A stretch of 52,317 nt of DNA from a virus, in the IMG/VR virus record IMGVR_UViG_3300021957_000053, positions 1 to 52,317 of that record; one strand, given 5' to 3'. Below are positions 5,705-28,727 of the stretch, one piece after another. How positions within the stretch are numbered: position 1 is the stretch's first letter; every line of letters starts with the position of its first letter. Below the pieces are notes generated by a model. It did not search any database, had not been told where the DNA came from, and saw only the letters and a list, made by a program, of their open reading frames with translations. Made by a program: the position numbers and the translations under genes.

Positions 5705-6249
5705 TGAAAAGGTTTGAAGCACCAATACCCGGACAGTCATTAACTAAAACTCCCGGTAACTATCCTTGGGAAAAAGAACCTAAGTTAGTAGATGTCGATG
5801 AAGTAATTAAAGCACATCTAACTAAAATATCTGAAGAGGATTCTATAGATAACTTACTGTTTATTTTAGAGTCAGGTCTGCCAGTAAATATTTTAGTTGA
5901 AACTATTTTAACTACTGCTGTTAGTAAAGGATTACATACTGTAGACGTAAGTTTGATTGTCGCACCAGTGATTCATGAGTTTGTTGTAGACTTAGCCACT
6001 GATGCGGGGGTAAACTTTAAAGAGTTCTTTGAAGACCCTAGTATGACAGAGCAAGAAAAAAATAGAAAAGCTGACATATTAATTAAAAAATCTTTAGCTG
6101 CTACTCCTGATGAAGAAAAAGATTCTGGGTATGATATGTTAAAAGAACTTTCTGGTACGACAGAAGCAAAAGCTGAAGAGCCTGTAGAAGAACAACCTAT
6201 GAAAGAACAATCTAAAGGTCTAATGAGTAGAGGTACACAGAATGGTTAA
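5704..6249 (+). CDS. Conserved late structural protein, 181 aa
   Basis: The N-terminus reads RFEAPIPGQSLTKTPGNYPWE, a proline-rich opening I associate with a family found in marine phages. The middle (about residues 45-110) is hydrophobic and helical, and the C-terminus is very acidic. The last residues, QSKGLMSRGTQNG, echo the SKGLMNKGG motif near the start of the 1420-aa protein. It is coupled to the transglycosylase gene upstream (TAATG) and overlaps the next gene by 8 bp. The function is unknown; the context says virion or ejection apparatus. Confidence 0.75.
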   Translation: MKRFEAPIPGQSLTKTPGNYPWEKEPKLVDVDEVIKAHLTKISEEDSIDNLLFILESGLPVNILVETILTTAVSKGLHTVDVSLIVAPVIHEFVVDLATDAGVNFKEFFEDPSMTEQEKNRKADILIKKSLAATPDEEKDSGYDMLKELSGTTEAKAEEPVEEQPMKEQSKGLMSRGTQNG

Positions 6250-7189
6250 TTTAAGAGTTGCTGCAGGTGGAGCCGCTGCAAGATACCTACAAAAAGAAGA
6301 TGAAAGAGAAGCTTTTATTAGAGAGCTTAGTATGAAAAATAGACAGTACCTTTTAGAAACTGGTGCTCAAAAACTGCAAGACTTAAGGGATCGTAGGGAT
6401 GCTAAACTTTCTAAAATTAGTGTAGCTACAAGCTTAGGGTTTACAGAAGAAGCTGCTATTCTTTTAGATGCATCCGGTCAACTTGATAAACAAATATCAG
6501 AGCTTTCTAAACTTAGTGATGATAAAATTAACAAAGATAATATTAAAATGATTAGCGAACTTGTTGTAAATAAAGTAAATCCAGAATACAGAGCACAAGT
6601 ATTAGAATCATTTTTAACTTCTACTAATTTTGATGTATCAGAAATACAAGAACGATTTGGTAATGCTATCTTTAATGCTGCAGAAGGTAGTGTAGAAAAA
6701 GCAAGTAAGATTTTATCTGAAGCTCCATCAGGATCTTCTATGTCTATAGATAATTTTGATATTAGCTTTAGACCTACTAGACCTATGACCACTGAAGATT
6801 TAAATACTGCAAATAAAGCAATAGATAATATTATCCAAGCTAATTTTGGTAATCTTTATACTGGAGATGGTGAAACCTATCAGGGAGAAGACGCACCTGA
6901 AGTTGGTAGAATTAGAAATGAAATGATGGAAGTGTATAAAAATACTTGGAACACCGCTACATACACTGGCAATCCTATAGATATACTTTATAGTTTAGGT
7001 GATAGTATTTACCAACAAACAAGAAAACAAGGTAGGCCAGCAGCAGGAGTTGTTGTAACTCCTAATTGGCAGGATTTACCTGACTATAATCAACCACCAC
7101 CAACTGGAGGGGGATCTGATAATAGTGGTGCTGAAGAGGATTTAACCGATGAAAATCCTTATGAAAAAATATACCCTTTAAACCCATAA
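6242..7189 (+). CDS. Late protein of unknown function, 315 aa
   Basis: The N-terminal 90 residues are helical and strongly charged (coiled-coil-like), the centre is mixed, and the C-terminus is rich in Pro, Gly and Asp (DYNQPPPTGGGSDNSG region). No catalytic motif is seen. It lies between the 181-aa structural protein (8-bp overlap) and the 1126-aa internal protein, all on one strand with almost no spacing. I infer an internal virion or ejection component, but the sequence does not prove it. Confidence 0.7.
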   Translation: MVNLRVAAGGAAARYLQKEDEREAFIRELSMKNRQYLLETGAQKLQDLRDRRDAKLSKISVATSLGFTEEAAILLDASGQLDKQISELSKLSDDKINKDNIKMISELVVNKVNPEYRAQVLESFLTSTNFDVSEIQERFGNAIFNAAEGSVEKASKILSEAPSGSSMSIDNFDISFRPTRPMTTEDLNTANKAIDNIIQANFGNLYTGDGETYQGEDAPEVGRIRNEMMEVYKNTWNTATYTGNPIDILYSLGDSIYQQTRKQGRPAAGVVVTPNWQDLPDYNQPPPTGGGSDNSGAEEDLTDENPYEKIYPLNP

Positions 7190-20728: not shown

Positions 20729-21381
20729 CATTCATTCTCCCTTAATGCTTCCCATGATACAGGAAACAGCTTAGCCATTTCAGTGTCTATATATCCAGCT
20801 ACAACCTGTGTTTCGTACTGTGTGTCAGGCTTACAACGTAGGTTACACATGTCTGCAAATGCATCTAAGCTACCTGACCAGTACCACTCAGTGACCATGC
20901 TCTGTGGCAGTACCATACGTGCTTGCTCTGGACACACACCTGCTTCAAGCAATGTTTCATATTCATACAATGCTGATCTGTTAAACTCATGTGGAACTAG
21001 GTAAGGAACCTTAACTTCACCTGAACTTCCTTGTTTTATATCCTCTGCTCTACCACGCCATTCACTAGGCACATATAACTCAGGCTCAGTGTCCACATAC
21101 CTACGACTAATCTCATTCCATCGTAGGAACTTATGCTTGACTAGCTGTCTAGCTACAAACACTGGAGCCTTGACATGGAAGCTGGCAAAGCAATGCCCGA
21201 AGGGGCTGATGTGCTTGTGCTTGGCTAGGTAACGTATGAGCTTGGCATCCTTGTCTTTCAACTTAGGTGGACCCCATACGTCACTGGTATCCATTTCACT
21301 ACGCTTACCAAAGCTTACTCGTGCTGCATTAGCTACAGATAAGTCAGTACCCATGTGATCTATGTAAAACGTTTGTAACAT
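20728..21381 (-). CDS. thyX: Flavin-dependent thymidylate synthase
   Basis: 217 residues. Makes dTMP from dUMP using FAD and methylene-tetrahydrofolate. The family signature RHR-x7-S appears as KHKFLRWNEISRRY, with Lys in place of both outer Arg, a variation also known in phage ThyX. The pair PEQARMVLPQSMVTEWYWSG and FADMCNLR form the substrate site. Together with nrdJ and mazG it secures deoxynucleotides for replication. Its ATG is directly coupled to the recombinase stop. Confidence 0.93.
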   Translation of the reverse strand: MLQTFYIDHMGTDLSVANAARVSFGKRSEMDTSDVWGPPKLKDKDAKLIRYLAKHKHISPFGHCFASFHVKAPVFVARQLVKHKFLRWNEISRRYVDTEPELYVPSEWRGRAEDIKQGSSGEVKVPYLVPHEFNRSALYEYETLLEAGVCPEQARMVLPQSMVTEWYWSGSLDAFADMCNLRCKPDTQYETQVVAGYIDTEMAKLFPVSWEALRENE

Positions 21382-22466
21382 TATTTCTTTCTCCTATCTA
21401 ATGCTGACTTAGCTGCAGCATAAGTATGTTTATGGTATGGATTTAGTGAAGAGATATTCTGATGTCCTGTCACTGACATAATAGCTAGATGATCTACCTC
21501 TGAGTCAATCATTTCTACTATAGCACTCTTCCTTAAATCTCCGACAAGTAAATTAGATGGTAGGTCTGCAGCTTCTTTTATTTGATTTGCTAATGATGAT
21601 ACCTGACCTACGTTTAATGGTCTGTAGGCACCATCTGATGGTCTCTGATGTGGTACTACGTAGTCTTGAAAGTCCCAATCTTTTTTCTGTTGAGTGAGCA
21701 TGTCCATGATCTCTTCAGAAATTGGTAGCTCAACTGTTGCTCCACGTTTAGTTTGTTTTATCTTTACCTTCTTCTCTTTAAAATTAATTGAAGACCACTT
21801 TAATAATCTTATATCGGTAGGTCTTTGTGCCCACTCATAGCACATCAGTACAATCAATCCTACATTACGCCAATCAAAATCAGTGAATGCAACATCAAGA
21901 AATTTTTCTACCTGTTCTTGCGTCCATGTTGTATCTCTTGTTTCATGTTTTCTTTTACGAACTTTAGACATAGGGTTATACTTAATTAAATCAATAGAGA
22001 TACAAAAATTTATTAGTAATGAAAAGATTCTTGAACACTGATTCCCTTTAGACACACTTACATCTTCACACCATTCTTCATAAGCCTCAGTACAATGCAT
22101 AGCAGTAAGGTCTTTAATCTTAACCTGACCTAACTTCCTACTACCAACACTTGTATTAGCAATAGCATTCATTGTGTTATCGTAAGTTCTTTGTGAGTTA
22201 TATGCTAACTGTTTAAAATGTGTAGTTGTTACATAGTATTTATAAATGTGTAGTATTGTAGAGTTAGGCCCAATGTTTCCTGCGACAATATCTCCACGTT
22301 TAAATGCTTCTACCTTTTCTATCAGCCTTGGTATCTCATACCTTGCTGCACGTCCATCTTTAAATGTTTGTCTTCGTGCAACACCAGCATCAATAGCATC
22401 TTGTGGTGGTGTAAATCTCCATACAGTACCAGTCTTTAAGTTTCCTTTCTTTGTATATTTATACAT
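21381..22466 (-). CDS. int: Tyrosine recombinase (integrase)
   Basis: 361 residues. An N-terminal core-binding part (about 70-175) is followed by a catalytic domain with Arg215 (EWAQRPTDI), Lys240 (KQTKRG), Arg312 (GDLRKS), His335 (TGHQN) and likely nucleophile Tyr344 (LNPYHKH), nine residues after the His. The first His of the usual H-x-x-R box is Gly309. It cuts and rejoins DNA at specific sites, suggesting integration or genome-dimer resolution. It lies at the head of the thyX-replication gene block behind its own promoter. No excisionase, repressor or attachment site was recognised. Confidence 0.88.
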   Translation of the reverse strand: MYKYTKKGNLKTGTVWRFTPPQDAIDAGVARRQTFKDGRAARYEIPRLIEKVEAFKRGDIVAGNIGPNSTILHIYKYYVTTTHFKQLAYNSQRTYDNTMNAIANTSVGSRKLGQVKIKDLTAMHCTEAYEEWCEDVSVSKGNQCSRIFSLLINFCISIDLIKYNPMSKVRKRKHETRDTTWTQEQVEKFLDVAFTDFDWRNVGLIVLMCYEWAQRPTDIRLLKWSSINFKEKKVKIKQTKRGATVELPISEEIMDMLTQQKKDWDFQDYVVPHQRPSDGAYRPLNVGQVSSLANQIKEAADLPSNLLVGDLRKSAIVEMIDSEVDHLAIMSVTGHQNISSLNPYHKHTYAAAKSALDRRKK

Positions 22467-23249: not shown

Positions 23250-23528
23250 TTAATAAGACCCATGATAGGGATGAATGCAGAGGTGAGGAAATGCCATCCT
23301 CAAACTACCTTCTGCACTAGATATACTTCTAGCATCTTCTATCGTAATGTCAAACATTTCTCGAAGATTGCTTTCAGTTTCTTGTAGTGCATCGTAGGCA
23401 GACTTGATTGCTTTTACCTGCTCGTCTATTAAGTCATGGCATTTTTCTTCAAGATCTATTCTACGTGCTTCTCGTTTATCTGCCCACTCTTGATGGCTCT
23501 TTGTGATTTCTTCTGGAGTCATTGTCAT
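23250..23528 (-). CDS. Helical early protein, 92 aa
   Basis: Residues 5-65 form a highly charged helix (SHQEWADKREARRIDLEEKC; LQETESNLREMF), likely a coiled coil. The SD AAGGAAC follows one copy of the CGGAA-N-TTCCG element, which separates this gene from the DUF932-like gene. Function unknown. Confidence 0.6.
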   Translation of the reverse strand: MTMTPEEITKSHQEWADKREARRIDLEEKCHDLIDEQVKAIKSAYDALQETESNLREMFDITIEDARSISSAEGSLRMAFPHLCIHPYHGSY

Positions 23529-23542
23529 TTTAGTTCCTTTCC

Positions 23543-23564
23543 ATTCTCGGAATTTCCGTGATTA
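23543..23564 (-). repeat. CGGAA-N-TTCCG intergenic element, copy 1
   Basis: Reads TAATCACGGAAATTCCGAGA then AT on the - strand. The TAA is the stop codon of the DUF932-like gene, and the element is followed by the SD of the 92-aa gene. Confidence 0.85.
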
Positions 23565-24401
23565 AGCTGCAAGTAAAAAACGATTGTCACTAACCCACTT
23601 GGATACCTCCTGTTCTCTACCCCACATTGAGGTAGCTTGTGTGTCATTACCTGTATTACGAAGATTAAATCCATTACGATCATCTGCATAAGTAGCATAG
23701 TTAGTAAAGGCAGAGTACAAGGCCCACTTGTTTTCACCTCTCATGCATGTCTCTGTACGGTACAGTTGATACATCTTCTTTGCCTTACGTTCTGATGGTA
23801 TCATTGCTTCTAGCAATGCCTCTACATCTACATCCTTGAGGCTAGTCTGTGCCCATGTTTTCATCTTGATGGCTTGCTCATAGAAGTCTGACCGTAGGTT
23901 AGACAGTTCATTTATGAACGAGCTAAGTGAGAAGTTAGAGGTGTTCTTTCTCCGAACTTTATCATGCTCACCACTGATGCACCCATTGGTGCAGAAGCTA
24001 TCAATAGCACCAAAGAATACTTGGTTACTACATGACCCATCAATACCATGTAATGATATAATACGGTTCTTTACCTCAGTCTGATGTCGATCAGTTTCTA
24101 TAACTGATTTCATACTAGGTAGTGTAATGTCGAGCATAGCCCAAGCACCACCACGAGCAGTCCTGAAGTTAAAGTCTGCACCATGTAAGTCACCCTCTTG
24201 TAACTCCTGAGTAGCAGTGTCTACGACATTACGAAAGAAGTCACCATGATTGGCACAAGTAAAGTCCTTGCCCACAATACCAAGGTATTCACCTGTATTA
24301 GTATTGATTACATACTTCTTATCTTTGAATTTAGTTTCCTCGAACTCTACTTCAAAGTCCAAGTGCTCTGGTACGAATGATGTTGTTGTATCAAAAGGCA
24401 T
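23562..24401 (-). CDS. DUF932-like phage protein, 279 aa
   Basis: The order of motifs (early KYVINTNTGEYLGIVGKDF, middle WAMLDITLPS, later FFGAIDSFCTNGCISGEHDKVRRKNT, and C-terminal LYSAFTNYATYADDRNGF) matches the DUF932 family carried by many phages and plasmids. Members are sometimes called LGT-type or plasmid-like proteins; no activity is proven. It is the largest gene of this stretch of small early genes and has copies of the intergenic element close to both ends. The call rests on pattern memory, so family membership is likely and function open. Confidence 0.75.
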   Translation of the reverse strand: MPFDTTTSFVPEHLDFEVEFEETKFKDKKYVINTNTGEYLGIVGKDFTCANHGDFFRNVVDTATQELQEGDLHGADFNFRTARGGAWAMLDITLPSMKSVIETDRHQTEVKNRIISLHGIDGSCSNQVFFGAIDSFCTNGCISGEHDKVRRKNTSNFSLSSFINELSNLRSDFYEQAIKMKTWAQTSLKDVDVEALLEAMIPSERKAKKMYQLYRTETCMRGENKWALYSAFTNYATYADDRNGFNLRNTGNDTQATSMWGREQEVSKWVSDNRFLLAA

Positions 24402-24402
24402 G

Positions 24403-24564
24403 TTATATCTCCATTTCTGTTATAAATTCTAAAGCTTCTTCTTCATCTGCACTTTCAGTGTAATACGCCCAGAGATCTTCTTGAACGTAATTAATTAACT
24501 GATCTATATCTAAACTGTCTGTCCATTTAGTTATAGCTTCTTCAAGTTTATCTTCGATATTCAT
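24403..24564 (-). CDS. Small acidic early protein, 53 aa
   Basis: ATG 24564 follows AAAGGAGTCGAT. Longer in-frame translation runs back through copy 2 of the repeated element and is unlikely to be used. The protein is a strongly acidic helix bundle type (DKLEEAITKWTDSLDIDQL; ESADEEEALEFITE), which could mimic DNA or bind a basic host protein; that is speculation. Confidence 0.6.
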   Translation of the reverse strand: MNIEDKLEEAITKWTDSLDIDQLINYVQEDLWAYYTESADEEEALEFITEMEI

Positions 24565-24577
24565 ATCGACTCCTTTC

Positions 24578-24599
24578 ATTCTCGGAATTTCCGTGATTA
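24578..24599 (-). repeat. CGGAA-N-TTCCG intergenic element, copy 2
   Basis: Identical to copy 1. Its TAA (24597-24599) ends the 232-aa Cys-rich gene, and AAAGGAG of the 53-aa gene follows at once. Confidence 0.85.
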
Positions 24600-25295
24600 G
24601 TGTTCCGATAGATGCACAATCTGTGTGCGGTTGATAGTCTTTTGTGCAAAGCAACCTGCCTTGCAGTCCTTGCAGTGACCCTTGAGATCCTTGTGGGTCT
24701 TAGGGCATAGGAACATTCTTGTTCCATAGACAGGATCAGATGTCAAGTCATCATCACCATAGAACATAATATTCCAGTCATCATCAATCAACATCTTCCA
24801 TTCAGCCTTGCTGTTGGATGGGTCAAGTGATGCATTAATGGCACAGTTAGGTAGAGGCATAAGCTCTTTCTCAATCAGAGCTTTGAGGCGTGGGTTACGC
24901 CATGCTCTGGTAGGAATCCACCATGTAGTATCTGGATTAAGTAGGCACATAGTCTTGACACGGTACACATCAATCACATCTTTGAAGGCTTCGCCTCTAG
25001 TCATGTGACGAACACGACTAGTATCATACCGTTTACGACTAAAGAATTTAGTGAAGTCAGAGTTAGACTTGTTTAGTTTCTGCCAGATAGTCTCACATCT
25101 GTCATCACGTTTAGCCATGTTAGGGTACATCTTGTATAACTTAACGTTATAACAAGTGTCATCGCAGTAATCTGTACGGTGGTCACAAGAACCAGTGTGG
25201 TTCTCGGTATCATTTATCGGTCTGTCTGTTGCAGCCATGCCTATGTCGGCACAGTATCTGAATAGATCATTAAGTTCTTGTGTTGTTACAGTCAT
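24597..25295 (-). CDS. Cysteine-rich early protein, 232 aa (Gp88-like, tentative)
   Basis: Cys clusters sit near the N-terminus (CDHRTDYCDDTCYN) and at the C-terminus (LCPKTHKDLKGHCKDCKAGC), with HMTRGEAFKDVIDVYR, NPDTTWWIPTRAW and ASLDPS between. This ordering resembles the Gp88-type proteins of actinophages and other phages, which have conserved Cys sets of unknown role, perhaps metal or Fe-S binding. The start ATG is the last three bases of copy 3 of the repeated element, so that element and translation start are physically linked. Confidence 0.65.
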   Translation of the reverse strand: MTVTTQELNDLFRYCADIGMAATDRPINDTENHTGSCDHRTDYCDDTCYNVKLYKMYPNMAKRDDRCETIWQKLNKSNSDFTKFFSRKRYDTSRVRHMTRGEAFKDVIDVYRVKTMCLLNPDTTWWIPTRAWRNPRLKALIEKELMPLPNCAINASLDPSNSKAEWKMLIDDDWNIMFYGDDDLTSDPVYGTRMFLCPKTHKDLKGHCKDCKAGCFAQKTINRTQIVHLSEH

Positions 25296-25315
25296 TCTCG
25301 GAATCTCCGTGATTG
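25294..25315 (-). repeat. CGGAA-N-TTCCG intergenic element, copy 3
   Basis: One base differs in the centre (GGAGATTCC). Its final AT plus the following G form the start codon of the 232-aa gene. Here the stop codon of the upstream gene lies 11 bp before the element. Confidence 0.8.
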
Positions 25316-25325
25316 GATGTTTCGT

Positions 25326-25718
25326 TTAAGTTCTGAATACCTTTATGACAGGTTTATTTTGTTTGTCAATATACAAATAAGCAACCTCGGCATGGTAGAT
25401 CGGCTCATCGTGCTCATCTACAAATGTGTTTGCATGGTATGGGTTATACCTGACACGTTCAAGCCTAGCTACATCATGAGGCAAGGCATAGTCAGGATCT
25501 TGAAACCATAGGTCAGCATCCACCTCAACCTCTTGAGGTCTGACAAATGCATGTACATTCTTGACTCTTTCATCTTGAGTCTTTGCCCACCCTGCAGGTT
25601 GCACTGCAAAGATAGGCTTGTGTGCTATGATACTATTAGTATGCCATTGCACCTTACCGTTTCTTTTCCTTACAGAAAAGACATGCTTGTGTAGGTTATA
25701 ATATATCTCGGTCTTCAT
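25326..25718 (-). CDS. Early protein, 130 aa
   Basis: ATG 25718 has GGAG six bases upstream, just after copy 4 of the element; an in-frame ATG four codons earlier (25730) overlaps the element end. The text HVFSVRKRNGKVQWHTNSIIAHKP and later VNVHAFVRPQEVEV-like stretches belong to a conserved phage early protein type I cannot name. Basic N-terminus, mixed alpha/beta. Confidence 0.65.
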   Translation of the reverse strand: MKTEIYYNLHKHVFSVRKRNGKVQWHTNSIIAHKPIFAVQPAGWAKTQDERVKNVHAFVRPQEVEVDADLWFQDPDYALPHDVARLERVRYNPYHANTFVDEHDEPIYHAEVAYLYIDKQNKPVIKVFRT

Positions 25719-25728
25719 TTGATTCTCC

Positions 25729-25750
25729 ATTCTCGGAATTTCCGTGATTA
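25729..25750 (-). repeat. CGGAA-N-TTCCG intergenic element, copy 4
   Basis: Identical to copies 1 and 2. Its TAA (25748-25750) is the stop codon of the 132-aa gene, and the SD of the 130-aa gene follows. Confidence 0.85.
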
Positions 25751-26146
25751 CAATTTGATGCAAAAGTCTAGCTCTCTTGCTAGTTCATGCCATCCAGTAG
25801 GCATACATAGGTACGCCTTGTTCTGCTGCAAGTGCACTATTATGTTACCCACAGATAGGCTAGTGTCACCCTTAGCAAGGGTGGTAACCTTAGCTTTACC
25901 ATATCCATTCCCTGCATCAAAGACAGCTTCCAATGGGTCAACAGACTCAGATAGCACACCCAGATGCAGGAACTTGGTTGGGTAATACATGTTATGAAAC
26001 AAAGCATCATTGACACTCTGTTCTGCAGACTTCTCATTGAGAAGCCTCAAATCAAAAGCAATCCTTGCTATCTCTGATTGAGGGTTCTCATTAATTATGT
26101 CATAGACTTCTGGTCTGAACTGATAGACGAGGTATGATCTGGACAT
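25748..26146 (-). CDS. Early protein, 132 aa
   Basis: Opens SRSYLVYQFRPEVYDIINENP, a strand followed by helix, with a beta-rich second half (SLSVGNIIVHLQQNKAYLCM) and a final helix. AAGGAG lies a few bases upstream. It overlaps the 3' end of the 68-aa gene. No family recognised. Confidence 0.6.
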   Translation of the reverse strand: MSRSYLVYQFRPEVYDIINENPQSEIARIAFDLRLLNEKSAEQSVNDALFHNMYYPTKFLHLGVLSESVDPLEAVFDAGNGYGKAKVTTLAKGDTSLSVGNIIVHLQQNKAYLCMPTGWHELARELDFCIKL

Positions 26147-26301
26147 TGGCTTAACTCCTTGTTGCCATGAATTTCCTTAGTTCTGTCACAGGATGAAACA
26201 GATGTCAAGGCTTTTGTTTTGAATAGCATTTGTCGATGCCATATAGACCGCCAATATTTGTCGGCACGTAAAGCAAACCTATCACGTTTGTTAATCTGCA
26301 T
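26095..26301 (-). CDS. Small basic early protein, 68 aa
   Basis: ATG 26301 stands directly behind GGAGGAGGAAG, the strongest SD in this stretch. The first half is basic and aromatic (NKRDRFALRADKYWRSIWHRQ), and the second half is Ser/Asp-rich. It overlaps the zinc-finger gene upstream and the 132-aa gene downstream (52 bp), so part of the C-terminus could be chance extension. Confidence 0.5.
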   Translation of the reverse strand: MQINKRDRFALRADKYWRSIWHRQMLFKTKALTSVSSCDRTKEIHGNKELSQCPDHTSSISSDQKSMT

Positions 26302-26425
26302 CTTCCTCCTCCATATTTAAAAACATTTCTGAGCACACTTCGCATAGATCACCACACTCATATCCATTCCATTCTGTATAGTGCAGAACTTCCTCTTCGT
26401 CACCACAGTTTTCACATTTAGGCAT
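26291..26425 (-). CDS. Small zinc-finger-like protein, 44 aa
   Basis: PKCENCGDEEE carries a first Cys-x-x-Cys pair, and YECGDLCEVCSEM a second set (Cys-x3-Cys-x-x-Cys), a pattern for one structural zinc. The rest is acidic. Its end contains the GGAGGAGGAAG used by the next gene, so translation is coupled. Small zinc ribbons in phages often bind host transcription or nucleic-acid proteins; the target here is unknown. Confidence 0.65.
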   Translation of the reverse strand: MPKCENCGDEEEVLHYTEWNGYECGDLCEVCSEMFLNMEEEDAD

Positions 26426-26428
26426 AGC

Positions 26429-26662
26429 TTAATCCTCATCTCCACACATGTTATCCCATTCTTCAGGGCTGATACCTGTCTTAATAAACTCACGTTGCTC
26501 GGCATCCAAGTCAGGCATTACATTCTGAATCAGTTCACCTGATTGTAGCCAGTATTCTATCTTACCCTGAGTCGTAGGTAAAACCATAGAGTTTACTCTA
26601 CCTGAAAGCATAGACTTCTTGTGAACAAATACTTTGTTCTCTGCAATGTGTTCTATCCGCAT
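26429..26662 (-). CDS. Small early protein, 77 aa
   Basis: RIEHIAENKVFVHKKSMLSGRVNSM then a strand-rich centre and an acidic helical end (DLDAEQREFIKTGISPEEWDNM). AAAGGAG lies eight bases upstream, right after copy 5 of the element. Three bases separate its stop from the zinc-finger gene. Unknown function. Confidence 0.6.
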   Translation of the reverse strand: MRIEHIAENKVFVHKKSMLSGRVNSMVLPTTQGKIEYWLQSGELIQNVMPDLDAEQREFIKTGISPEEWDNMCGDED

Positions 26663-26808
26663 GTTATTCTCCTTTTCATTCTCGGATTTTCCGTGATTAG
26701 TTTTGCATTGTTAGGGAAACGTTTCAGTATCTTCGATACTTGGCGCATGTCACGACAAGTAAGATAAGAAAACATAAACCCTTCCTCATCATAGAAACAT
26801 ACACGCAT
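26653..26808 (-). CDS. Small early protein, 51 aa, reading through the repeated element
   Basis: Starts MRVCFYDEEGFMFSYLTCRDM and continues as a basic helix. Its reading frame crosses copy 5 of the intergenic element, translating it as LITENPRM, and stops ten bases into the next gene. No ribosome site better than GGGGGTGA is seen. The inverted repeat AGTATC-TTC-GATACT (26726-26740) in its middle is the first member of the hairpin-dense tract. Confidence 0.5.
   Translation of the reverse strand: MRVCFYDEEGFMFSYLTCRDMRQVSKILKRFPNNAKLITENPRMKRRITCG
26678..26699 (-). repeat. CGGAA-N-TTCCG intergenic element, copy 5
   Basis: One base differs (GGAAAATCC). Here the TAA is not used as a stop; the element is read in frame by the 51-aa gene. 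It is followed by AAAGGAG of the 77-aa gene. Confidence 0.8.
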
Positions 26809-26810
26809 GA

Positions 26811-26966
26811 TCACCCCCGATCAAAAGCTAAAACAGAAAGTAATATTACTACAGGTAGTAAGGATAATAATATTATAGGATTAATAGTAGTATAAGCTAC
26901 TATTAATAATATACTTGAAGTAGATATAAGTATTAATAACCAAGCAAGAAATAATATTACTGGCAT
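26811..26966 (-). CDS. Small membrane protein, 51 aa
   Basis: ATG 26966 has AAAGGAG eight bases upstream. The 51 residues are nearly all hydrophobic with two membrane segments (ILFLAWLLILISTSSILLIV; IILLSLLPVVILLSVL) and a charged end (FDRG). A holin-like or membrane-signalling protein is possible. Its DNA contains the 10-bp-arm inverted repeat TTAATAGTAG/CTACTATTAA and an AGTAATATTACT palindrome, so it lies in the hairpin-dense tract. Confidence 0.6.
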   Translation of the reverse strand: MPVILFLAWLLILISTSSILLIVAYTTINPIILLSLLPVVILLSVLAFDRG

Positions 26967-27002
26967 CGCATGATCTCCTTTGCCGCATGTCCACAAAAAA
27001 GT

Positions 27003-27023
27003 ATTCTCGGAATTTCCGAGAAC
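27003..27023 (-). repeat. CGGAA-N-TTCCG element, copy 6 (symmetrical form)
   Basis: TTCTCGGAA-T-TTCCGAGAA: arms of 9 bp around a single centre base. Copies 1-5 have only a shorter core symmetry. It lies in the 112-bp gap between the membrane protein and the 61-aa gene. Confidence 0.85.
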
Positions 27024-27055
27024 ACCATTATACTTCTCTGAAGTATAAACAAAAA

Positions 27056-27080
27056 AAGCTCCCCGAAGGGAGCTTCTTTT
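27056..27080 (-). terminator. Hairpin terminator with UUCG loop
   Basis: AAGCTCCC and GGGAGCTT pair (8 bp) around a 4-base loop. On the - strand the loop reads TTCG and the stem is followed by TTTTTTT, a textbook rho-independent terminator. On the + strand CTTCTTTT follows, so it may work both ways. It lies just after the 61-aa gene. Confidence 0.8.
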
Positions 27081-27264
27081 ATATTTCACCGAGAAAGATT
27101 AAACAATCTATAAAGCCTTCAGCTTTATGTTTGTTTATCCAAGAGTCACTCTCCTTTTTAAGGAGGACTGGTAAATCATATCTGTCGGTTATTAACCGAC
27201 CTTGATAGCAAAAACAGTATTCATTATCTGAATACTCTAAGATTTGAACTCCACTATATTCCAT
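27079..27264 (-). CDS. Small acidic protein in hairpin tract, 61 aa
   Basis: EYSGVQILEYSDNEYCFCYQG, then LITDRYDLPVLLKKESD, a small mixed alpha/beta sequence of unknown family. Its DNA is largely made of inverted repeats (AGTATTCA/TGAATACT, GTCGGTT/AACCGAC, CTCCTT/AAGGAG, ATAAAGC/GCTTTAT). The SD (GGAGA) lies in the loop and right arm of a 7-bp stem at 27268-27284, the same arrangement as for the 204-aa gene. Confidence 0.55.
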   Translation of the reverse strand: MEYSGVQILEYSDNEYCFCYQGRLITDRYDLPVLLKKESDSWINKHKAEGFIDCLIFLGEI

Positions 27265-27267
27265 ATT

Positions 27268-27284
27268 TTAAATCTCCGATTTAA
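27268..27284 (-). promoter_or_regulatory. Hairpin presenting the SD of the 61-aa gene
   Basis: TTAAATC-TCC-GATTTAA on the + strand; in the mRNA the loop is GGA and the SD GGAGA spans loop and stem, a few bases before the start codon. Folding would partly hide the ribosome site. Confidence 0.6.
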
Positions 27285-27288
27285 GTTG

Positions 27289-27310
27289 ATCACGGAATTT
27301 CCGAGATTGA
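27289..27310 (+). repeat. CGGAA-N-TTCCG element, copy 7 (opposite orientation)
   Basis: Reads ATCACGGAATTTCCGAGATT then GA on the + strand, the reverse of copies 1-5. It lies between the 204-aa gene and the SD hairpin of the 61-aa gene. Confidence 0.8.
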
Positions 27311-27311
27311 A

Positions 27312-27331
27312 TAGCCCCCCGAAGGGGGCTA
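27312..27331. other. GC-rich hairpin after the 204-aa gene
   Basis: TAGCCCCC and GGGGGCTA pair around CGAA (TTCG on the - strand). It resembles the terminator at 27056 but has no T run, so it may be an RNA 3'-end protector or processing block and not a terminator. Confidence 0.6.
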
Positions 27332-27337
27332 AATGAT

Positions 27338-27952
27338 TTACTTGAAGAGCTTTGCAAGCTCTTTTGCGAACTCAGATCTCTTAAAGCCTCCGGCTTGAAG
27401 AGCATCAAATACTTGCTCTGCAAGTTCCTTTTCGTTCTTGGCTATCACTGTCTCAAAGACAGTGTTCTTTAGCACTTCCTCAGCCTTATTAGGCTGCTCA
27501 GAAGCCTTCGGCTTGCCCTTCGAGGTGTTTCCTGCTGAAGAAGCTTTAGGCTTCTTACGAAGCTCAGGATGAGCTTCCAGAACAATCTTCCGTATCGAAG
27601 ATACGCCAAGTGCTGAAAGCTTACCAGCTTTGTTTAACTGTTGGACTTTAGTCCAATGGGTGGCAATCCACTTGGCATCATATTTATCAGCGGAGCTGAT
27701 GTTTTCATTCGACAAATCGGTTCCACCGATAAAAGAGCCGTAGGCTTTCTTGTCACCACCGAACAATGCTTCAATTTGAAGCAAGACATTACCGAGTTCT
27801 CGGTAAAGGTTAAGCTGATCCTCTTGGATCAGATAAAGCTTGTCATAACAAGCTACGGCATGGCTGATTCCATCAGTGATAGTGTAGGTCTTACGACCTA
27901 ATTTGAATTGGCTGTTCAATGTTACCGTAGGTAAAGTAGCTGAATTTGTCAT
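27338..27952 (-). CDS. First early gene: 204-aa protein encoded almost entirely by hairpins
   Basis: The N-terminal 120 residues look folded (FKLGRKTYTITDGISHAVACYDK; YRELGNVLLQIEALFGGDKKAYG; WIATHWTKVQQLN). Residues about 125-160 are a Lys/Pro/Ser linker (RKKPKASSAGNTSKGKPKAS), and the end is helical and charged (KELAEQVFDALQAGGFKRSEFAKEL). No family recognised. The shape (domain, basic linker, helix) fits a DNA-binding or early takeover protein. The coding DNA holds at least 16 perfect inverted repeats, yet the frame is intact, so both protein and structure seem maintained. It is the first gene behind the 28.0-kb promoter. Confidence 0.75.
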   Translation of the reverse strand: MTNSATLPTVTLNSQFKLGRKTYTITDGISHAVACYDKLYLIQEDQLNLYRELGNVLLQIEALFGGDKKAYGSFIGGTDLSNENISSADKYDAKWIATHWTKVQQLNKAGKLSALGVSSIRKIVLEAHPELRKKPKASSAGNTSKGKPKASEQPNKAEEVLKNTVFETVIAKNEKELAEQVFDALQAGGFKRSEFAKELAKLFK

Positions 27953-27954
27953 CG

Positions 27955-27969
27955 TTAATCTCCGATTAA
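27955..27969 (-). promoter_or_regulatory. Hairpin presenting the SD of the 204-aa gene
   Basis: TTAATC-TCC-GATTAA on the + strand, giving loop GGA in the mRNA with the SD GGAG across loop and stem. It has the same loop and inner stem as the hairpin before the 61-aa gene, pointing to shared control of translation. Confidence 0.6.
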
Positions 27970-28011
27970 GTTAAGGTTGCTGCCTCATCGATTTGCCGAT
28001 GAAGCCCTTAC

Positions 28012-28041
28012 TTTGTAGCACTATCCAAAATCGATTGTCAA
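28012..28041 (-). promoter_or_regulatory. Leftward early promoter
   Basis: On the - strand: TTGACA, exactly 18 bp, TACAAA, with TGC before the -10 box. It is placed to start the early transcript about 50 bp upstream of the 204-aa gene. The leader would contain the hairpin TCATCG/CGATGA (27985-28002) and the SD hairpin. Confidence 0.65.
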
Positions 28042-28070
28042 GCCCTATTTAAACCCTAAAGGGTTTACCT

Positions 28071-28093
28071 ATTCTCGGAAATTCCGAGATTGA
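28071..28093 (-). repeat. CGGAA-N-TTCCG element, copy 8 (symmetrical form)
   Basis: TCTCGGAA-A-TTCCGAGA: 8-bp arms around one base, lying just upstream of the leftward early promoter, where a bound protein could influence it. Confidence 0.8.
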
Positions 28094-28699
28094 ACTTCCC
28101 CTTTAGGGGAAAAACTTCCCATCTTTTCCCAAGCATTATGCGAAAGAAAAAGCTATGCAGGTGATCCTGATCCCAAGCATGATCCCAACCGATTGAACCA
28201 TATTATGGTTTGACCATGATCTTGGTCTAAAGACCAAAGCCCTGTAATCCCCAAGAGATTACCTTGTAATCTGATAAAGGGAATCCCTTATTGTTTATAA
28301 AAACAATACATTTCAATGACTTGTCATTGATTCTTGTTGAATCCTACGGATTTACAGGCATGATCAAGCCCATCTAGGCTACGGGGGGCATGGGCCAGTG
28401 GGGGGTACGTAGATACTATATACACTCAATGACAGAGAGGGGTATTTTTAGTTGGTAACTACAATTATACCAGCCCATATATAGTATTCCCTAGTAAAAA
28501 CATAGGGTTAATCTAATTATTGGTACGAAAGTAAGTAGTCTATAATAGGATACTGGGGAGATATGTGAGATATGTTACAAAGTCTGTAACAATTTGTGAC
28601 CATATGGACTTATACTTTGTGGTAACTGGACTTACATAGAAATTTAATAGTGTTAAATAAATATTAAATTAATTTAAATATTATTTCTTACTTTTAGTC

Positions 28700-28727
28700 T
28701 TGACAAATATTCAAAGTGCGGTATAAT
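28700..28727 (+). promoter_or_regulatory. Rightward consensus sigma70-type promoter
   Basis: TTGACA, 16 bp, TATAAT: both boxes are perfect consensus. The expected start point falls within the inverted repeat that follows, so this promoter is likely to be repressible. It would drive the lysis and head genes. Confidence 0.8.

What the first reader, a model, noticed from the sequence alone, without database searches (positions are those of the whole stretch)
23543..28093. Eight copies of a CGGAA-N-TTCCG element at gene junctions
A 21-22-bp element recurs at 23543, 24578, 25294, 25729, 26678, 27003, 27289 and 28071. In copies 1, 2 and 4 its first three bases are the stop codon of the upstream gene; in copy 3 its end supplies the start codon of the next. 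It is followed by an SD in most cases. Placement resembles the stoperators of mycobacteriophage L5 or the boundary sequences thought to help phages exchange genes. With an integrase present, a repressor binding many early sites is conceivable.
Basis: partly seen in the sequence, partly recalled or inferred. Interest (0 to 1): 0.82.

Follow-up and report, generated by a model that had tools for sequence, protein, structure and literature searches.

The report
Repeated operator dyads in marine phage
Eight copies of one symmetric DNA site sit between the early genes of an ocean phage, and comparison with some 90 related sequences indicates they are binding sites for a new family of DNA-binding protein encoded by the phage's first early gene; site and protein change together, much as phage immunity systems do.

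Summary
All eight copies match TCWCGGAANTTCCGWGA with at most one mismatch; 60 shuffled genomes gave none. All lie in the leftward early operon of an HMO-2011-type (Roseobacter/SAR116) podovirus.

They are DNA dyads, not RNA hairpins: the A/T position inside the arm is unpaired across the dyad in 29 of 45 distinct copies.

Relatives carry the same arrangement with other dyads (GTCCAA-N2-TTGGAC, GTCCCAA-N2, CCCCAA-N2, GTCCG-N4, TCATGG-N5, GTGTTA-N2, GTAACG-N1). Two near-identical contigs have identical flanks but different dyads at shared junctions. That contradicts passive recombination boundaries and shows concerted change of specificity.

The cognate protein is very probably the first early gene (window 27338-27952), a ~200-aa family without any Pfam, PHROG or PDB match. 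All 70 gene-1 loci found by protein search have repeated dyads. Dyad type follows the gene-1 N-terminal domain, including a natural domain-swap chimera. Early regions of six relatives without gene 1 lack a junction dyad series.

Best explanation: an autoregulated, stoperator-like repressor/roadblock system, unrelated in site design and sequence to that of mycobacteriophage L5. Repression itself, and its use in lysogeny or lytic timing, are inferred.

The parts
23545..23561 (-). dyad copy 1, TCACGGAAATTCCGAGA; abuts the stop codon of the DUF932 gene, 16 nt before the start of 23250-23528
   Evidence: element present at the orthologous junction in 6 of 6 relatives that have the gene
24580..24596 (-). 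dyad copy 2; abuts the stop codon of 24597-25295
25296..25312 (-). dyad copy 3 (1 mismatch, TCACGGAGATTCCGAGA); abuts the start codon of 24597-25295, which the longer element includes
   Evidence: 7 of 8 relatives
25731..25747 (-). dyad copy 4; abuts the stop codon of 25748-26146
   Evidence: 6 of 7 relatives
26680..26696 (-). dyad copy 5 (1 mismatch, TCACGGAAAATCCGAGA)
27005..27021 (-). dyad copy 6, symmetric; follows a hairpin (ATACTTC/GAAGTAT) and an intrinsic-terminator-like site
   Evidence: 6 of 6 relatives
27290..27306 (.). dyad copy 7, opposite orientation; just downstream of the gene-1 stop codon
   Evidence: 4 of 4 relatives
28073..28089 (.). dyad copy 8, in the leader upstream of gene 1
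   Evidence: 5 of 5 relatives
27338..27952 (-). gene 1 of the early operon (204 aa): putative dyad-binding protein, bracketed by copies 8 and 7; no known family
21381..22466 (-). tyrosine integrase downstream in the same operon
   Evidence: co-occurrence with gene 1
23562..24401 (-). DUF932 gene between copies 1 and 2 (used to find relatives)
24597..25295 (-). gp88-like gene (PF17338) between copies 2 and 3
25326..25718 (-). L5 gp82-like gene (PF25735) downstream of copy 4

Best explanation
The eight elements are operator dyads for a phage-encoded, probably dimeric DNA-binding protein, the product of the first early gene (27338-27952). Its N-terminal helical domain, with a helix-turn-helix-like segment whose second helix starts ID(K/R)RRRSEALW in many relatives, reads the half-site; a variable linker joins it to a C-terminal helical segment that may dimerise. 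One dyad lies in the leader upstream of gene 1, one just after (or, in some relatives, inside) gene 1, and the rest lie at early-gene junctions. A bound protein would limit its own expression and act as a series of roadblocks to RNA polymerase along the early operon, like stoperators but with a different protein and site design. Shown here: the sites, their DNA-level symmetry, their conservation, concerted change of specificity, and co-variation with the gene-1 N domain. Inferred: direct binding, dimerisation, repression or blocking of elongation, and a role in lysogeny/superinfection immunity or in early shut-off.
For: Sites and chance level. DNA rather than RNA: A/T position not complementary across the dyad in 29 of 45 distinct copies; centre flipped between copies (AGTCCG-CTGT/ACAG-CGGACT). 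Conservation at 36 of 43 shared junctions. Several lineages each have their own dyad at early junctions. Concerted switch: L176 and L177 share 60/60 bases downstream and 35/43 to 49/49 upstream at three junctions, but have GTGTTA-N2-TAACAC against GTAACG-N1-CGTTAC. HMO-2011 and L252 show the same with a symmetric change on both arms. Gene 1: 70 of 70 loci found by protein have repeated dyads. Nearest neighbour by N domain predicts dyad type in 59 of 60, by C domain in 53 of 60. Chimera L261 has an N domain 88% identical to a GTCCAA-type protein and a C domain 75% identical to HMO-2011 gp74 (GTCCG type), and its dyads are GTCCAA type. Window-type and RRSEA-type gene 1 are colinear homologs (hhalign E 5.6e-5; hmmsearch E 7e-5). 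Other operon genes are unlikely as cognate: DUF932, integrase and polymerase are 94-98% identical between L176 and L177 despite different dyads. Integrase present in all 20 gene-1 loci with enough downstream DNA; in the group CRP-3 is known to integrate (PMC6918029).
Against: No binding or expression data. Gene 1 has no known DNA-binding domain by sequence and no convincing fold match. The window protein's own model is poor (pLDDT 51). No gene-1 relative was found in a collection of 84,980 species genomes, so prophages carrying it are rare or unsampled. CRP-3, a proven integrator, lacks gene 1 and the dyads, so lysogeny in this group does not require them. L177's gene 1 cannot be aligned to the others. 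Gene 1 of L176 is off the contig. Promoters are not mapped, so whether the leader dyad is upstream or downstream of the early start is unknown. Many of the compared sequences are related, so counts are not independent events.
Confidence: 0.62

Rival explanations
1. Gene 1 binds the dyads but acts positively: an activator, or a DNA-loaded antitermination factor that helps RNA polymerase through the early operon.
For: Gene 1 is the first early gene; the operon has terminator-like hairpins near copies 6 and 7. The leader dyad lies upstream of a TTGACA-type promoter candidate in L219 and L220 and of a TTGACA in the window leader (28041-28036, - strand).
Against: At junction copies 1-5 only 0-17 nt separate the dyad from the start codon, too little for an activated promoter serving that gene. 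Most junction dyads are not next to terminators.
Confidence: 0.15
2. The dyads are partition or maintenance sites (parS-like) for an extrachromosomal prophage, and gene 1 is the centromere-binding protein.
For: Multiple dispersed dyads outside coding sequence with a co-varying binding protein would fit; few integrated prophages are seen.
Against: No ParA/ParM-like gene appeared among the operon proteins scanned. Sites are confined to the early operon junctions. An integrase is present wherever it could be checked.
Confidence: 0.08
3. The element works in RNA, as a hairpin controlling translation or processing at gene junctions.
For: Dyads next to Shine-Dalgarno sequences could fold; copies 6 and 8 can form six pairs.
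Against: The arm position is mismatched in 29 of 45 distinct elements. GTGTTA-AA-TAACAC would fold weakly. Copies occur in both orientations and in the leader 120 nt from a start codon.
Confidence: 0.03
4. Boundary sequences that promote exchange of gene cassettes by homologous recombination.
For: Placement exactly between genes; gene content between dyads differs among relatives.
Against: Near-identical genes carry different dyads in different phages; passive homology cannot explain concerted replacement or co-variation with gene 1.
Confidence: 0.03
5. Sites for a host regulator borrowed by the phage.
For: Host factors can bind palindromes of this size.
Against: The dyad follows the phage gene-1 N domain. 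CRP-1, CRP-9, CRP-13 and CRP-2 were isolated on the same host strain FZCC0023, yet only CRP-1 has the GTCCAA dyad series.
Confidence: 0.04

Closest known systems
Stoperators and immunity repressor of mycobacteriophage L5 and Cluster A phages (PMC6550527, PMC9283540)
   Same: Many copies of one site in short intergenic spaces. Site consensus and phage protein diverge together between lineages. Phages carry integrases; two early proteins here are homologs of L5 gp82 and of the gp88 family.
   Different: L5 sites are 13 bp, asymmetric, oriented with transcription, 20-30 per genome, and bound by a monomer with two DNA-binding domains. Here they are 14-21 bp dyads, mostly 3-8 per genome, in the early operon, in both orientations; gene 1 has no detectable sequence relation to a known repressor and is the first early gene.
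Start-associated sequences (SAS/ESAS) of Cluster K mycobacteriophages (PMC3203893)
   Same: Repeated short sequences just upstream of start codons of non-structural genes, sometimes overlapping a stop codon.
   Different: SAS contains the Shine-Dalgarno sequence, is asymmetric and sits 3-7 bp from the start. These dyads lie apart from the SD and occur in leaders and, in some relatives, inside gene 1.
Lambda-type repressor/operator dyads (own knowledge)
   Same: Symmetric half-sites read by a helix-turn-helix dimer, with specificity that switches in concert among immunity types.
   Different: Lambda operators cluster at two promoters; here single dyads are spread along the operon at gene junctions.

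Membership tests
Cluster A (L5) stoperator system | 13-bp asymmetric site in one orientation relative to transcription | tested here: not met
   Sites are dyads; copy 7 is inverted relative to copies 1-5
Cluster A (L5) stoperator system | Cognate repressor recognisably homologous in sequence to the L5 repressor (HTH plus stoperator domain) | tested here: not met
   No sequence match to any PDB repressor, Pfam or PHROG family
Cluster A (L5) stoperator system | Cognate repressor sharing the fold of the L5 repressor | tested here: inconclusive
   Foldseek and VIA-align gave only weak generic helical matches
Cluster A (L5) stoperator system | 20-30 sites across the genome including promoter operators | tested here: not met
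   8 sites in the window, all within 4.6 kb of the early operon; mostly 3-8 in relatives
Cluster A (L5) stoperator system | Sites in short intergenic spaces of early genes | tested here: met
Cluster A (L5) stoperator system | Site consensus co-varies with the phage DNA-binding protein | tested here: met
Cluster A (L5) stoperator system | Bound protein blocks transcription elongation and gives superinfection immunity | not testable with these tools
   needs binding, reporter and lysogen experiments
Start-associated sequences (Cluster K) | Asymmetric GGGATAGGAGCCC containing the ribosome-binding site | tested here: not met
   SD lies outside the dyad
Recombination boundary sequences | Shared junction sequence maintained by homology between exchanging phages | tested here: not met
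   Identical genes, different dyads
RNA hairpin element | Arms keep base pairing through compensatory change | tested here: not met
   29 of 45 distinct elements unpaired at the A/T position
Known repressor/HTH families in Pfam, PHROGs, PDB (gene 1) | Significant profile match of gene 1 | tested here: not met

The most novel reading that the evidence does not exclude
A second, independently evolved stoperator-type immunity system, in the abundant marine HMO-2011-type phages: a new helical DNA-binding protein family (gene 1) with dyad operators strung along the early operon, diversifying into many mutually blind specificities by concerted replacement of all operators in a genome, with modular swapping of the specificity domain.
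Probability: 0.45. Interest if true: 0.85.

Novelty: new variant of a known kind. Interest (0 to 1): 0.72.

Why it matters
HMO-2011-type phages are described as dominant and broadly distributed in the ocean (PMC9038755), yet nothing in the papers read here describes how they regulate early genes. A protein and site pair found in over 80 sequences, with natural switches of specificity between near-identical genomes and a natural domain-swap chimera, gives a ready system for asking how immunity-type specificities evolve outside actinobacteriophages. It also suggests a function for a family of hypothetical proteins and a simple rule for predicting cross-immunity from sequence.

Tried and rejected
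Sequence search of gene 1 against Pfam, PHROGs and PDB found no family. Foldseek and VIA-align on the best gene-1 model gave only generic helical matches (Z up to 4.1); the one good viral match, S4S2E1, is 205 aa like HMO-2011 gp74 and is probably that protein. The window protein's own model is too poor to search. A scan of bacterial genomes for gene 1 found none; portal relatives appear almost only in metagenome bins. Rfam found nothing in the window at its gathering scores and nothing convincing in five leaders. The palindrome GTTTAA-N2-TTAAAC in CRP-9 and CRP-13 (2-3 copies) was seen but no gene-1 relative was found there. An ungapped comparison of the L176/L177 junctions was misaligned by one base and was redone with gaps.
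Full report
WHAT IS THERE. The window is a viral contig of the HMO-2011 type: its portal protein is about 57-77% identical to those of Roseobacter phages such as CRP-9, CRP-13, CRP-345, CRP-1 and of HMO-2011. The early operon runs leftward from about 28.1 kb. The eight elements are real and confined to it: eight sites with at most one mismatch to TCWCGGAANTTCCGWGA at 23545-28089 and none elsewhere, against none in 60 shuffles. In the sense of transcription they read TAATCACGGAAATTCCGAGAATG. Copies 1, 2 and 4 begin with the upstream stop codon; copy 3 supplies a start codon; copy 8 lies in the leader and copy 7 just after the first gene.

DNA OR RNA. In 45 distinct copies from twelve loci of relatives, the A/T base inside each arm is A/A or T/T (unpaired) in 29 and complementary in 16. 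An RNA stem should not tolerate this; a protein that accepts any A:T pair there would. In HMO-2011 the four-base centre is ACAG in some copies and CTGT in others, that is, the site is flipped.

RELATIVES HAVE DIFFERENT DYADS IN THE SAME PLACES. A scan for the motif found about a dozen close relatives with two to six copies. At 43 orthologous junctions in eight relatives, the element is present in 36. More distant relatives, found through the DUF932 gene or as named isolates, carry other repeated dyads at early junctions: TCATGG-N5-CCATGA (L148), GTCCAA-N2-TTGGAC (CRP-345, CRP-1, L154), TGTTA-N2-TAACA (L176), GTAACG-N1-CGTTAC (L177), AGTCCG-N4-CGGACT (HMO-2011, L184), GTCCCA-N4-TGGGAC (L207, L215), GTCCG-N4 (L213).

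NATURAL EXPERIMENT 1. L176 and L177 are close: gp88-like, DUF932, integrase and polymerase proteins are 94-99% identical. At three shared junctions the 60 bases downstream are identical and 35/43, 45/48 and 49/49 aligned upstream bases match, yet L176 has GTGTTA-N2-TAACAC and L177 has GTAACG-N1-CGTTAC at each. At a fourth shared junction the flanks have diverged, but the dyads differ in the same way. NATURAL EXPERIMENT 2. The HMO-2011 copy at position 60 and the L252 copy at 7097 have nearly identical flanks, but AGTCCG-CTGT-CGGACT against AGTCCA-AGGT-TGGACT, a change on both arms. Passive cassette boundaries cannot do this; selection for a changed binding protein can.

THE COGNATE PROTEIN. 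It is unlikely to be one of the genes shared at 94% identity or more between L176 and L177. The first early gene is the natural candidate: in the lineages where it is on the contig a dyad lies in its leader and another just behind it or in its linker codons. In GTCCAA types the codons TCC AAC GTT GGA (SNVG) of an otherwise variable linker are the dyad. A search with gene-1 proteins alone, blind to the dyads, found 70 loci. With exact half-sites 65 carry repeated dyads of the GTCC/TCCC type. Four more have two or three copies when one mismatch is allowed. The last, L270, has its own variant, CCCCAA-N2-TTGGGG. The dyad follows the residues at the start of a conserved helix: ID(K/R)RRR(S/A)EA gives GTCCAA-N2, IDSQRRSEALW gives CCCCAA-N2, VASQRRSEA gives GTCCCAA-N2, VAKQRR(S/K/Q)EA gives GTCCG-N4. 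The nearest neighbour in the N domain predicts the dyad in 59 of 60 cases (the miss can only be the single member of its class), in the C domain in 53 of 60. L261 is a natural chimera: N domain 88% identical to L252 (GTCCAA), C domain 75% identical to HMO-2011 gp74 (GTCCG); its dyads are GTCCAA type. These are mostly related sequences, so the counts are not independent events; the chimera and the two flank-identical switches carry most weight.

The window's gene 1 (204 aa) belongs to the same family: profile comparison is colinear with E 5.6e-5 (probability 66%), and the RRSEA-type profile finds two CGGAA-type proteins at E 7e-5 and 1e-4. The model of an RRSEA-type member is all helical (mean pLDDT 81.6, pTM 0.52) with helices 67-73 and 80-91 in a helix-turn-helix-like order around the specificity residues. 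That this is an HTH is an inference; no fold match supports it.

CONTROLS. The early regions examined of CRP-9, CRP-13, CRP-603, CRP-2, CRP-3 and ctYwJ313 lack gene 1 and lack a repeated junction dyad series; CRP-9 and CRP-13 have two or three GTTTAA-N2-TTAAAC (in CRP-13 they lie in the leader). For all but CRP-9 only part of the genome was read. CRP-1, CRP-9, CRP-13 and CRP-2 share one host strain, which argues against a host factor.

HOW IT MOST LIKELY WORKS. Gene 1 is made first, binds the leader dyad and the dyad behind or inside its own gene, and so limits its own expression; the remaining dyads act as roadblocks along the early operon. Little room (0-17 nt) between dyad and start codon at copies 1-5 argues against local activation. 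An integrase is present in all 20 gene-1 loci with enough fetched DNA. [quoted passage not shown] This makes a lysogeny/immunity role plausible, but CRP-3 itself lacks gene 1 in the regions read, and no gene-1 prophage was found in bacterial genomes. A purely lytic early shut-off is therefore not excluded. My estimates: DNA-binding site 0.95; gene 1 cognate 0.85; roadblock/repressor function 0.6; lysogenic immunity as its main use 0.4.

WHAT IT RESEMBLES. It works like stoperators but is not a member of that family: site symmetry, orientation, number and protein sequence all differ (membership table). In the searches made here, the two papers on HMO-2011-type phages that were read do not mention palindromes, repressors or promoters; a search for HMO-2011 with 'palindromic' gave no paper on the subject by title; the listed papers using the word stoperator concern actinobacteriophages.

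Noticed in passing
leaders of gene 1 in relatives, e.g. L216 about 5945-6045 (HMO-2011 about 53945-54045); alignment A6: A conserved ~95-nt element between leader dyad and gene 1 (CACGAGTTTnGCGCACGAACTTCG...TGCAGTCACnCGnGAAACGGCAGGCGCAGAGGAT) with seven base pairs changed on both sides and no one-sided changes in 27 sequences; no Rfam match in five leaders. Probably an undescribed structured RNA; absent from the window.
   Followed up: partly
window 26900-28450: Leader, gene 1 and the next small gene are unusually rich in short hairpins on both strands (mean folding z -2.8/-2.3 against about -0.5 over the window), including inside the gene-1 coding sequence; weaker but similar in gene 1 of several relatives.
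   Followed up: partly
leaders of relatives upstream of the leader dyad, e.g. L219, L216, L239, L281: Another conserved stem-loop, CAACTGTTATGNNATCAGTTGCC, and a TGCCGATGCA motif occur upstream of the leader dyad in many lineages.
   Followed up: no
L123:1190-1280, L184:4420-4510, L252:7040-7110, window 27022-27045: A hairpin of the type ATACTTTAGTGAAAGTAT (ATACTTCAGAGAAGTAT in the window) stands a short way before dyads at several non-coding junctions; hairpin plus dyad looks like a module.
   Followed up: no
window 27268-27284 and 27956-27971: Shine-Dalgarno sequences lie in the loop of small palindromes (TTAAATCGGAGATTTAA, TTAATCGGAGATTAA) before two of the first early genes.
   Followed up: no
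CRP-9 and CRP-13 (L119/L308, L217): Two or three copies of GTTTAA-N2-TTAAAC, with the same geometry as GTCCAA-N2-TTGGAC, in phages without a detectable gene 1.
   Followed up: partly
window 28700-28727: A perfect match to both sigma-70 hexamers (TTGACA-N16-TATAAT) pointing rightward, towards the other gene arm, without a dyad near it.
   Followed up: no
window 25326-25718 and 24597-25295: Early genes homologous to mycobacteriophage L5 gp82 (PF25735) and to the gp88 family (PF17338), in an HMO-2011-type marine phage.
   Followed up: no
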